From the NCBI GenBank assembly GCA_027023405.1, contig JALVVN010000020.1:1-41555 (forward strand): DNA of 41,555 nt, given 5' to 3'. Below are positions 1,879 through 41,555 of this stretch, one piece after another. Made by a program: the position numbers and the translations under genes. This DNA comes from Campylobacterales bacterium. GTDB lineage: Bacteria; Campylobacterota; Campylobacteria; Campylobacterales; QNZT01. Numbering within the stretch: the first letter of the stretch is position 1; each line of letters opens with the position of its first letter. Below the pieces are notes generated by a model that ran no database searches, was not told where the DNA came from, and was given only the letters and a program-made list of their open reading frames with translations.

Positions 1879-2681
1879 ATGCCAAACAAACAACATGACT
1901 CATTTGTTTATGACAGAACCCTAAGAGAACTCTTCCAAGATGTCCCAAGAGCACTGATAAAGTTGCTTGTCAATAAAGAGATCAAAGAGATACTAGAGAC
2001 TAGCTTTCCAAAGGTAGAAGAGCGAAGAGTCGATCTTTTGACAAGACTCGAAGATGATACACTCTTTCATTTAGAAATTCAATCTATCAACGATACGCTC
2101 ATGCCAAAAAGGATGCTAAAGTACGCTTCACTGATCTATGAAAACTACGGAGAGTTTCCTTTTCAAATGGTACTCTATGTCGGAGATCGAGATATCAAGA
2201 TCCAAAACCAAATAAATGAGAAAAATTTACGCTATAATTATGAAACAAGAGATATCAGAGAGTTGATTGCTCAAAACTTATTGAAAGTGAAGATATTACA
2301 GATAACATAATTGCTATACTCTGTAAAATACAAGACTTTGACAAACTCTTTGCAAAGTTGCAGAGCAAATTGCTAAATCTCGACAACAAAAGACGAGAGG
2401 ATTATCTCAGAAAACTCTTCTACTTGTTGAGACTTAGACCTGATATCCATAAAAAGTACAAAGAAAAACAAGCTGAGGAGTTAGCTATGCCGTTTATCAT
2501 AGAAAAAGAGAGGGATCCGCTTTATAAGGATGGATTGGAAGCAGGGTTGGAAAAAGGGATGGAGAAAGTAAGCGAAACAAAGATCGCTATCGCCAAAGCG
2601 CTTTTAAAACAGAAAATTGATATCGAAGTAATTGTAAAATCTACGGGGCTTTCAAGGGAAGAGATAGAGAAACTGAAGTAA
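1879..2681 (+). pseudogene. Rpn-family PD-(D/E)XK nuclease, frameshifted
   Basis: Two reading frames together make one Rpn/'putative transposase' family protein. The first (1879-2310) holds the N-terminal nuclease core, with D52 and the E66-I-Q68 pair of a PD-(D/E)XK fold and the usual YDRTLRELF start. The second frame resumes as IDCSKLIESEDITDNIIAIL and runs through YLRKLFYLLRLRPDI to the C-terminal helical part ending at 2681. The join falls at about 2261-2266, where loss of one base after the codons for DIRE explains the switch. Family members are single ORFs of roughly 270-300 residues, so this copy is probably dead. They have been linked to RecA-independent recombination. Confidence 0.8.
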
Positions 2682-2708
2682 CACTGCATCTGCTGAAGGA
2701 TTCATCAA
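2680..2708 (+). repeat. Possible short remnant of the comEA-like gene
   Basis: About 23 of 29 bases match the part of the comEA-like gene encoding [10 protein letters not shown] (here NTASAEGFIK, starting AACACTGCATCTGCTGAAGG). It begins on the stop codon of the Rpn frame. The match is short and could be chance, but it occurs within 1.2 kb of the intact gene and a longer remnant. Confidence 0.3.
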
Positions 2709-2734
2709 GCCCCCTCTCTTTTATCCGCCTCTGC

Positions 2735-2740
2735 TATAAT
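2735..2740 (+). promoter_or_regulatory. -10 box before the DUF808 gene
   Basis: TATAAT in the context CTGCTATAAT lies 40 bases before the TTG start at 2781. No convincing -35 is seen, as is usual for sigma-70 promoters in this phylum. Confidence 0.55.
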
Positions 2741-2780
2741 ACCTCCCAACTATAAACTATAACAACACAAGGATTCACTC

Positions 2781-3653
2781 TTGGCTTCAGGTTTTTTCGC
2801 TCTTTTTGATGATATTGCGACGCTCATGGACGATGTAGCGGTGACAAGCAAGGTTGCGGCCCAGAAAACGGTGGGTATTTTAGGCGACGATCTCGCGGTC
2901 AATGCCGAGCAGGCTTCCGGTTTTTTGAGTTCGCGAGAGATCCCCGTGTTGTGGGCGATCACCAAGGGTTCGTTTCGAAATAAGCTCATTATCCTCCCGA
3001 TCGCTTTTTTGTTGAGTTATTTTGCGCCGTGGTTGATTACGCCAATCTTGCTGTTGGGTGGCGCCTATTTGGCGTTTGAGGGGGCGGAGAAGATCTATGA
3101 AGTTTTATTTCATCATACCGAGAGTAAGCATATCGACGATCTAGCGCCCAAAAGCGAGGAAATGCTTCTTGCGGAGGAGAAGAAAAAGATCGACTCCGCC
3201 ATTCGTACCGACTTTATCCTCTCCATCGAGATTGTCGTTATCGCTTTGGGCACAGTCGTCAATAGTCCGCTTATGACGCAGATCTTTGTCGTTACGCTCA
3301 TCGCACTTTTGGCGACGATCGGGGTCTATGGGATAGTAGCGTTGATTGTCCGAATGGATGATTTTGGTCTTGCATTGATACGAAAAGATCATGCCAAAAA
3401 CGGTCTCCTGACCAAGATCGGCAGAGGTCTTGTCTGGCTCCTGCCTAAGGTGATCAAATCTCTCGGCGTTATCGGTACGATCGCCATGCTATTAGTCGCC
3501 GGTGGGATCTATCTTCACCATATTCACACACTTCATACTCTTAATGACTATTTGCCTGAGATCCTATCAAGCTTACTGATCGGTCTGGGGATCGGTGTGA
3601 TCATTTTGGTACCGATTTTGCTTTATCATCGCATTAGACATCAAGGAGCCTAG
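2781..3653 (+). CDS. DUF808 family inner-membrane protein (YedI-like)
   Basis: The 290-residue protein matches the DUF808/YedI family along its length: an N-terminal stretch with LFDDIATLMDDVAV, then ILGDDLAVNAEQ and VLWAITKGSFRNK, then several hydrophobic segments. About six membrane spans can be seen, with the conserved GGAYLAFEGAEKIYE between the second and third. The start is a TTG at 2781 with AAGGA seven bases before it; no ATG fits the family's N-terminus. Its stop abuts the start of the next gene, a cation/proton antiporter, so the two are one operon. The biochemical role of the family is unknown; the neighbour suggests ion or envelope homeostasis. Confidence 0.85.
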   Translation: MASGFFALFDDIATLMDDVAVTSKVAAQKTVGILGDDLAVNAEQASGFLSSREIPVLWAITKGSFRNKLIILPIAFLLSYFAPWLITPILLLGGAYLAFEGAEKIYEVLFHHTESKHIDDLAPKSEEMLLAEEKKKIDSAIRTDFILSIEIVVIALGTVVNSPLMTQIFVVTLIALLATIGVYGIVALIVRMDDFGLALIRKDHAKNGLLTKIGRGLVWLLPKVIKSLGVIGTIAMLLVAGGIYLHHIHTLHTLNDYLPEILSSLLIGLGIGVIILVPILLYHRIRHQGA

Positions 3654-40150: not shown

Positions 40151-40226
40151 GGGCCCTTAGCTCAGCTGGGAGAGCGCCACGCTGGCAGCGTGGAGGTCAC
40201 CGGTTCGATCCCGGTAGGGTCCACCA
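40151..40226 (+). tRNA. tRNA-Ala, anticodon GGC
   Basis: The 76-base gene starts GGGCCCTTAGCTCAGCTGGG, has the anticodon arm CCACG-CTGGCAG-CGTGG (anticodon GGC), the T-arm with GGTTCGATCCC, and ends AGGGTCC-A-CCA with CCA encoded. The acceptor stem GGGCCCT/AGGGTCC contains one G-U pair. It reads GCC and GCU. It marks the border between core DNA and the AT-rich accessory stretch to the right, although no repeated tRNA end (attachment site) is seen inside the window. Confidence 0.95.
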
Positions 40227-40453: not shown

Positions 40454-40846
40454 TTAAAACCAATCAACAATGATTAATTTATCTACTCTTTGAAATTCTT
40501 TAGTATTGTTGGTAACTAAAGTTAAGTTGTTAGCTTTAGCACAACCGGCTATCAAGGTATCCATAGGTCCAATTGAAGTTCCATTTTTTTCCAAAGAAGC
40601 TCTAATCAATGCGGACTCTTTTGCCTCTTTTTCACCAAAATCAACAATTTGAATTTGTTCTAATAATACATTTAGTTGTTCTCTTCTCTTTTTTGAATTA
40701 ATTGACTTTGCAATCCCAACTTCCAACTCATATAGTACGATTGAAGGGATAAAGATATCTTTTGGAGAGCATGAAAACAGATTTTCAGAGACTCTCCCCA
40801 TGCCTTTAAAAAAGTAAATAACACTATTTGTATCTAGCAAATACAT
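40454..40846 (-). CDS. vapC: VapC-type PIN-domain ribonuclease toxin
   Basis: The 130-residue protein is a VapC toxin: LLDTNSVIYF carries D5, SIVLYELEVGIAK carries E40, GPMDTLIAGCA carries D96, and LTLVTNNTKEFQRV closes the metal site. All acidic residues expected for an Mg-dependent RNase are present. The ATG follows the antitoxin stop without a gap (TAAATG), so synthesis is coupled. AT-rich composition and position next to a tRNA fit recent acquisition. Confidence 0.92.
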   Translation of the reverse strand: MYLLDTNSVIYFFKGMGRVSENLFSCSPKDIFIPSIVLYELEVGIAKSINSKKRREQLNVLLEQIQIVDFGEKEAKESALIRASLEKNGTSIGPMDTLIAGCAKANNLTLVTNNTKEFQRVDKLIIVDWF

Positions 40847-41077
40847 TTAAAATGCTTCTCTTCTTGCATCTTGTGTATCGCTACTTCTAATCTCTTCAAC
40901 CGTGGGGAAATCACTCCAACTTCCAGCCAAGTTTTTTATCTTTGGATTCCAATTATTACTAATGTTTCTTTCTAAAACGGTTGATATATATTTGCTGATA
41001 GAAGTATCTTGTGAAGCAGCTATCTCTTTTACTTTTGATTCTAAGTCATTGTTTATATAAATAGTTATTTGAGCCAT
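40847..41077 (-). CDS. vapB: VapB-type antitoxin with ribbon-helix-helix domain
   Basis: The 76-residue protein starts AQITIYINNDLESKVKEIAA, a ribbon-helix-helix DNA-binding domain, and continues with a flexible tail (DFPTVEEIRSSDTQDARREAF) that would wrap the toxin. It sits directly upstream of vapC on the same strand, with AAGGATATTCAT before its ATG. The complex is expected to repress its own promoter. Confidence 0.88.
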   Translation of the reverse strand: MAQITIYINNDLESKVKEIAASQDTSISKYISTVLERNISNNWNPKIKNLAGSWSDFPTVEEIRSSDTQDARREAF

Positions 41078-41176: not shown

Positions 41177-41336
41177 ATGAAAGGTAAAATATCTGTGATA
41201 TTTGTCGGTATAATTTCTATCTTTATTCTTTTACCTGAATTAAAATGCTCATTGGGATCATTTTTTATCAAATATTTTGTTAGCTATAGGACTTGTTTTA
41301 GTACTAAAAGTTAAGAGTCAAGCCCCCGTATCATAA
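41177..41336 (+). pseudogene. Small membrane-protein frame with apparent frameshift
   Basis: An ATG at 41177 opens MKGKISVIFVGIISIFILLP, but that frame degenerates after residue 24 and stops at 41314. A shift of one base at the TTAAAATGC run (about 41248) continues as HWDHFLSNILLAIGLVLVLK and KSQAPVS to a stop at 41334-41336, which reads as a sensible second membrane helix. The pattern suggests a two-helix membrane protein broken by a one-base insertion. No Shine-Dalgarno is obvious. The family is unknown. Confidence 0.4.
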
Positions 41337-41389
41337 GAATGTAGCAAATTAGCTATCATTTTATAAGAGTTTGTTTAGTAGTAATAAAT

Positions 41390-41555
41390 CGGGTTTAAGC
41401 CCGAAGCGGTTGTTTTTCTTAAGAGAAATAACTAGCTTGAGGGTCAGTTAGATTATTGCACTAAAAACTTGTGTGGCAACAAGATCGGTAATAAACCAGA
41501 TCGTATTTTACGAGGTCAAGTTAAGTGTAGTTGATTGCTATAACTCACGCAGGAG
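41390..41555 (+). ncRNA. Candidate structured RNA, possible HEARO/omega-RNA-type leader
   Basis: Six small hairpins follow one another: CGGG/CCCG (41390-41403), GTTGTTTTTC.../...GAAATAAC (41409-41432), CTTGT/ACAAG (41468-41483), GATC-GGT/ACC-GATC (41483-41502), CGTA/TACG (41502-41512) and GTG-AGTT/AACT-CAC (41525-41548). Between and around them are conserved-looking purine linkers, and the window ends in GCAGGAG, a ribosome-binding site. No protein is encoded. The arrangement fits a structured RNA lying just ahead of a gene outside the window, as HEARO RNAs lie ahead of iscB/isrB; that label is tentative. Confidence 0.35.

What the first reader, a model, noticed from the sequence alone, without database searches (positions are those of the whole stretch)
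41390..41555. Row of six hairpins ending in AGGAG at the right edge: possible IscB/IsrB omega-RNA leader
Within 165 bases I can pair six consecutive stems (4-10 bp) with no coding frame, then GCAGGAG at the very end, implying a protein start just outside. HEARO RNAs, now known as omega-RNAs of the RNA-guided nucleases IscB and IsrB, have this placement and hairpin density and occur in AT-rich accessory DNA. The last stem plus RBS (GTG-AGTT...AACT-CAC then GCAGGAG) strengthens the idea of an RNA tied to the next gene. I recall the family only roughly, so other structured leaders or transposon ends are possible.
Basis: partly seen in the sequence, partly recalled or inferred. Interest (0 to 1): 0.65.

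Follow-up and report, generated by a model that had tools for sequence, protein, structure and literature searches.

The report
Bridge RNA of an IS110 transposon

Summary
The structured RNA is real. It is not an IscB/IsrB omega-RNA. The window ends at a contig break inside an insertion sequence: its last 127 bases are identical to the start of contig C17. C17 continues into an intact 325-aa IS110-family recombinase, homologous over its full length to the IS621 and ISCro4 bridge recombinases. "GCAGGAG" is one arm of a hairpin completed beyond the break (CGCAGGAG-TTAT-CTCCTGCG), not the ribosome-binding site; the ATG is 50 bases past the window end. Related elements across Campylobacterota share the RNA: 35 base pairs hold in 96.8% of cells and 31 of them have compensatory changes. 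They form the published layout with a target-binding and a donor-binding loop. Both loops match the DNA they should read. Left and right target guides fit the element's own flanks and change with them (0 of 20,000 permutations reach the observed fit). Donor guides match the element's own ends. Rfam, HEARO included, finds nothing here. Verdict: a new member of a known kind, the IS110 bridge RNA. Modest extras: a closing helix and 3' hairpin, a CC left core, and mini-elements that keep the RNA but lose most of the recombinase.

The parts
41312..41324 (+). left target flank (LT), outside the element: TTAAGAGTCAAGCC
   Evidence: differs between the C20 and C2 copies up to 41319; matches the left target guide
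41325..41326 (+). left core dinucleotide, CC here (CT in most relatives); start of the IS110 element
   Evidence: multi-copy relatives fix the left end
41327..41334 (+). right donor sequence (RD) CGTATCAT at the left end; TATCAT at 41329-41334 is a possible -10 box for the RNA
   Evidence: conserved CGTATAAT-like start in relatives; promoter role inferred from IS621
41336..41362 (+). 5' stem-loop
   Evidence: fold of the complete RNA; hairpin seen in relatives
41365..41380 (+). 5' arm of the closing helix; 3' arm is at about C17:141-156, beyond the window
   Evidence: duplex of at least 7 bp in 27 of 28 relatives
41387..41454 (+). target-binding loop: outer stem 41387-41390/41451-41454, inner hairpin stem 41404-41410/41431-41438
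   Evidence: covariation in both helices
41394..41403 (+). left target guide TTTAAGCCCG
   Evidence: matches the left flank; covaries across relatives, 0 of 20,000 permutations
41441..41447 (+). right target guide GGGTC plus core-pairing AG
   Evidence: complements right flank CT-GACCC at C17; covaries, 0 of 20,000 permutations
41448..41449 (+). handshake guide TT, complement of donor end AA
   Evidence: 2 of 20,000 for both bases; inner position uninformative; role as in PMC11208158
41455..41531 (+). donor-binding loop: outer stems 41455-41461/41525-41531 and 41467-41470/41518-41521, inner stem 41483-41488/41496-41502
   Evidence: covariation in all three helices
41473..41480 (+). left donor guide GTGGCAAC, same as right-end terminus GTGGCAA-CT
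   Evidence: matches and follows variants GTGGTAA, GTAGCGA, GTGGAAA
41506..41515 (+). right donor guide TTTTACGAGG, complement of CCTCGTA at the left end
41548..41555 (+). 5' arm CGCAGGAG of the 3' hairpin; other arm at C17:133-139; not an RBS
   Evidence: all 7 pairs of this helix have compensatory changes
41429..41555 (.). contig-end overlap with C17:1-127; recombinase gene lies at C17:177-1154 (= window coordinates 41605-42582)

Best explanation
The stretch is the bridge RNA of an IS110-type insertion sequence, cut by a contig end. The RNA is encoded in the long left non-coding end, upstream of the recombinase gene, and folds into a target-binding loop and a donor-binding loop. By analogy with IS621, the recombinase binds this RNA. 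The first loop pairs with both strands of the chromosomal target (about AAGCC-C[C/T]-GACCC). The second pairs with the joined right and left ends of the excised circle (GTGGCAA-CT-CGTATC). The enzyme (DEDD residues plus serine) then exchanges strands at the core dinucleotide and inserts the element. Shown here: gene identity, element ends, RNA fold with covariation, guide-DNA matches that covary. Inferred: expression from the circle junction, protein-RNA binding, circle formation and catalysis.
For: Recombinase directly downstream with both IS110 domains, full-length match to IS621 and ISCro4 and catalytic D7, E56, D99, D102 and S243 aligned to IS621 D11, E60, D102, D105, S241. Element ends fixed by multi-copy relatives in complete genomes. 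RNA fold: 35 pairs, 96.8% of cells paired, 31 pairs with double changes, no shuffle of 500 as good. Target guides fit own flanks: right 4.2 of 5 against 1.4 for others, left 6.1 of 8 against 3.7, 0 of 20,000 permutations each, one element per distinct guide. Donor guides match the element's ends. A covariance model of the RNA finds it in all 14 genomes tested.
Against: The join of C20 to C17 rests on a 127-base contig overlap, and a second left end on C2 also exists, so the left and right flanks discussed may belong to different copies. The left core is CC in both copies, not CT. L012, L069 and L011 have right flanks that do not fit their guide. No expression, binding or activity data.
Confidence: 0.95

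Rival explanations
1. Omega-RNA (HEARO) of an IscB/IsrB RNA-guided nuclease.
For: Dense hairpins directly upstream of a mobile-element gene.
Against: No RF02033 hit; the next gene is an IS110 recombinase; other C17 genes checked are a nitroreductase, an ArsC-like protein, a subtilase and one without a family; two loops with donor and target guides are not the omega-RNA layout (established knowledge).
Confidence: 0.01
2. A cis-regulatory leader (riboswitch or antiterminator type) that controls the recombinase gene rather than guiding DNA.
For: It lies in the 5' leader of the gene; weak sub-threshold bglG-cis-reg score (21 bits against a cut-off of 80).
Against: Does not explain why loop sequences change in step with flanking genomic DNA. 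A bridge RNA could also affect expression of the gene, so a side role is not excluded.
Confidence: 0.02
3. A decayed, inactive IS110 end whose RNA and guides are relics.
For: Truncated and mini copies exist in related genomes; L054 and L059 carry one stop inside the gene.
Against: The 325-aa frame here is intact with all catalytic residues, and the two left ends are identical over 41320-41446 while their flanks differ, suggesting recent movement.
Confidence: 0.05

Closest known systems
IS621 and its 177-nt bridge RNA (IS110 family; Durrant et al. 2024, PMC11208160; Hiraizumi et al. 2024, PMC11208158)
   Same: Homologous recombinase over its full length, RNA in the left end, 5' stem-loop then target-binding then donor-binding loop, guide order and strands, CT core at the right end, likely handshake guide.
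   Different: Longer RNA (about 250 nt inferred), a long closing helix and a conserved 3' hairpin, longer right target guide, different guide sequences, CC at the left core.
ISCro4 recombinase (PDB 9t56)
   Same: Full-length sequence relative.
   Different: RNA not compared here.
IS1111-type elements and seekRNA (Siddiquee et al. 2024, PMC11187229)
   Same: Same enzyme class and RNA-guided target choice.
   Different: IS1111 has its non-coding region downstream and 11-13 bp subterminal inverted repeats; here it is upstream (280 against 98 bp) and no such repeat was found.
HEARO / omega-RNA of IscB and IsrB (RF02033)
   Same: Structured guide RNA next to a mobile-element gene.
   Different: No model hit, no IscB/IsrB gene, different guide logic.

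Membership tests
IS110 family (IS110 subgroup) | Recombinase with DEDD_Tnp_IS110 and Transposase_20 domains | tested here: met
   E 3.9e-20 and 8.8e-15, both above the curated cut-off; NF033542 169.6 bits against 140
IS110 family (IS110 subgroup) | Catalytic D-E-D-D and serine of IS621 | tested here: met
   all five aligned
IS110 family (IS110 subgroup) | Longer non-coding region upstream of the gene, no long subterminal inverted repeats | tested here: met
   280 bp left, 98 bp right; longest inverted match 6 bp, as in shuffles
IS110 bridge RNA | Two stem-loops with internal loops after a 5' stem-loop | tested here: met
   six covarying helices; 5' stem-loop in the single-sequence fold only
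IS110 bridge RNA | First loop: 5' side matches left target, 3' side complements right target | tested here: met
   0 of 20,000 permutations for each
IS110 bridge RNA | Second loop matches the element's own ends | tested here: met
   left donor guide 6.9 of 7 over 31 elements; right donor guide by inspection
IS110 bridge RNA | CT core at both junctions | tested here: inconclusive
   CT at the right end; CC at both left ends of this genome
IS110 bridge RNA | Transcribed, bound by the recombinase, directs recombination of a circle | not testable with these tools
   needs experiments
HEARO / omega-RNA (RF02033) | Covariance-model match | tested here: not met
   no hit at gathering threshold, none up to E = 5 at the edge
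HEARO / omega-RNA (RF02033) | IscB/IsrB (RuvC, HNH) gene directly downstream | tested here: not met
   next gene is an IS110 recombinase
IS1111 / seekRNA | Downstream non-coding region and 11-13 bp subterminal inverted repeats | tested here: not met

The most novel reading that the evidence does not exclude
This Campylobacterota group is a distinct bridge-RNA variant: a larger RNA closed by a long helix with a conserved 3' hairpin, tolerant of a non-CT core on the target side (CC here, apparently TT or AT in some relatives). It may also spread non-autonomous mini-elements that keep the bridge RNA and both ends but have lost most of the recombinase.
Probability: 0.25. Interest if true: 0.5.

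Novelty: new member of a known kind. Interest (0 to 1): 0.34.

Why it matters
It adds a compact, well-bounded IS110 bridge system with a readable guide code from Campylobacterota. I found no held paper naming both IS110 and Campylobacterota, or IS110 and Sulfurimonas; most subscription papers are not in that library. The RNA was aligned from 33 elements with 15 distinct right target guides among those with a readable right end, so the guide rules can be tested outside the IS621 lineage. It also shows that a contig break can hide the identity of a guide RNA, and that Rfam release 15 does not detect these bridge RNAs.

Tried and rejected
Rfam searches for HEARO, introns, riboswitches: only tRNAs in the window; a weak bglG-type score below threshold was rejected. 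AGGAG as RBS: rejected, it is a hairpin arm. First thought that GGTGGCAACTGACCC was a repeated chromosomal target: rejected, since its left part is the right end of the element and only GACCC is flank. Viral contigs: no relative. Plasmids: only distant IS110 hits at about 29-33% identity. A trimmed alignment (A2) had wrong ends and was not used. A motif search for unoccupied targets in the own genome with two mismatches did not exceed the reversed-pattern control (67 against 76). No structure prediction was run, because the sequence match to solved IS621 was already full length.

Full report
What was checked. The finding covers the last 165 bases of the window. The + strand is more structured than shuffled sequence (z -3.2), the - strand much less so (z -1.6). 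No Rfam family other than two tRNAs reaches its gathering score in the window, and a permissive scan of the edge gives only sub-threshold scores, with no HEARO among them.

Extending to the right. The window is contig C20 of a 44-contig assembly. Its last 127 bases are identical to the first 127 bases of contig C17, a typical k-mer overlap. C17 continues with TTATCTCCTGCGCTAACAAGC and, at C17:177 (window coordinate 41605), an ATG opening a 325-aa frame. The protein has both IS110 domains and passes the NCBIfam cut-off for 'IS110 family RNA-guided transposase'. By sequence its only PDB relatives are the IS621 and ISCro4 bridge recombinases, matched end to end, with the DEDD residues and the serine aligned. 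IscB/IsrB is therefore excluded as the next gene.

Ends of the element. A second left end sits at C2:1-142, identical over 41320-41446 and different outside. Relatives with several copies in complete genomes (five in G245, three in G396, two each in G255, G149 and G076) fix both ends. The left end is core CT followed by CGTATAAT or a close variant. The right end is GTGG[C/T/A]AA followed by core CT. In this genome the element is about 1,356 bp, with 280 bp of left and 98 bp of right non-coding sequence and no long inverted repeats between the ends, as in the IS110 rather than the IS1111 group (PMC11187229, PMC11208160).

The RNA. 24 relatives were aligned. RNAalifold gives 37 pairs. With two doubtful pairs removed, the remaining 35 are standard in 96.8% of cells, 31 have changes on both sides, and all measures exceed every one of 500 shuffles. 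Sliding partners by one to three columns drops pairing to 31-38%. Because the structure came from the same alignment, the slid control is somewhat favourable, but the double changes (170 cells against 47 in shuffles) are not explained by that. The helices make an outer and inner stem around a first internal loop, the same around a second, and a 3' hairpin. A closing helix joins the 5' part to the 3' end in 27 of 28 relatives. A covariance model from this alignment finds the RNA in all 14 genomes tested; some of these genomes supplied the alignment, so those matches are partly by construction. One extra match, in G415, has only a stub of the recombinase beside it.

The guides. [quoted passage not shown] Here loop 1 has TTTAAGCCCG on its 5' side and the left flank reads TCAAGCC-CC. 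Its 3' side has GGGTC-AG and the right flank reads CT-GACCC. Loop 2 has GTGGCAAC and the right terminus reads GTGGCAA-CT; its other side has TTTTACGAGG and the left terminus consensus reads CCTCGTA. Across relatives these change together. Examples are guide CCAAC with flank GTTGG (L059), CTCCA with TGGAG (L073), GACAC with GTGTC (L041), and left guide TGCGGAAC with left flank TGCGGAAC (L035). With one element per distinct guide, right guides pair 4.2 of 5 with their own flank against 1.4 with others', and left guides match 6.1 of 8 against 3.7. No permutation of 20,000 reaches either. Donor guides follow the right terminus as well, but with few distinct variants (5 distinct guides, 351 of 20,000 permutations as good). 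The two bases after the right guide (TT, or TC where the donor ends in GA) fit the donor end as the published handshake guide would (PMC11208158); the test for both bases gives 2 of 20,000, and the inner position alone is uninformative because it hardly varies.

Caveats. Contig joining is inferred from overlap. The left core is CC in both copies here, which a strict CT rule would not predict. A few relatives (L012, L069, L011) have right flanks that do not fit. The permutation test treats elements as independent, although they are related; taking one per distinct guide reduces but does not remove this. Expression and activity are inferred from IS621.

Verdict. It is an IS110 bridge RNA, a new member of a kind described in 2024, with modest variant features.

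Noticed in passing
L023 (JALUBH010000007.1, 1210-1850) and L024 (JALUBH010000045.1, 1453-1850): Two copies of an in-frame internally deleted relative (recombinase residues 1-42 joined to 277-325). L023 keeps the bridge RNA and both ends; the two copies have different flanks, and no full-length recombinase was found in that assembly. Possible non-autonomous mini-element.
   Followed up: partly
L017 about 2595-2630, L054 downstream of the gene, L048 downstream, C31:696-723, C17:3438: Short extra copies of the right-end sequence (TTTAAGGTGG[C/T]AACTG...) without an element attached, some within 150 bp of a full copy. Origin unexplained: remnants, or products of one-sided events.
   Followed up: partly
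window 40454-41077 (-): PIN-domain protein with a small gene upstream (VapBC-like toxin-antitoxin pair), between a tRNA-Ala (40151-40226) and the IS110 element.
   Followed up: partly
L011 right end, C166: The right flank of this relative reads CT-CGTATC, resembling the element's own left-end sequence instead of the guide's target.
   Followed up: no
L004 (C17) 2363-3029: Two similar small proteins of 82-84 aa on the minus strand in a repeat-like stretch; similar sequence lies beside the C2 left end.
   Followed up: no
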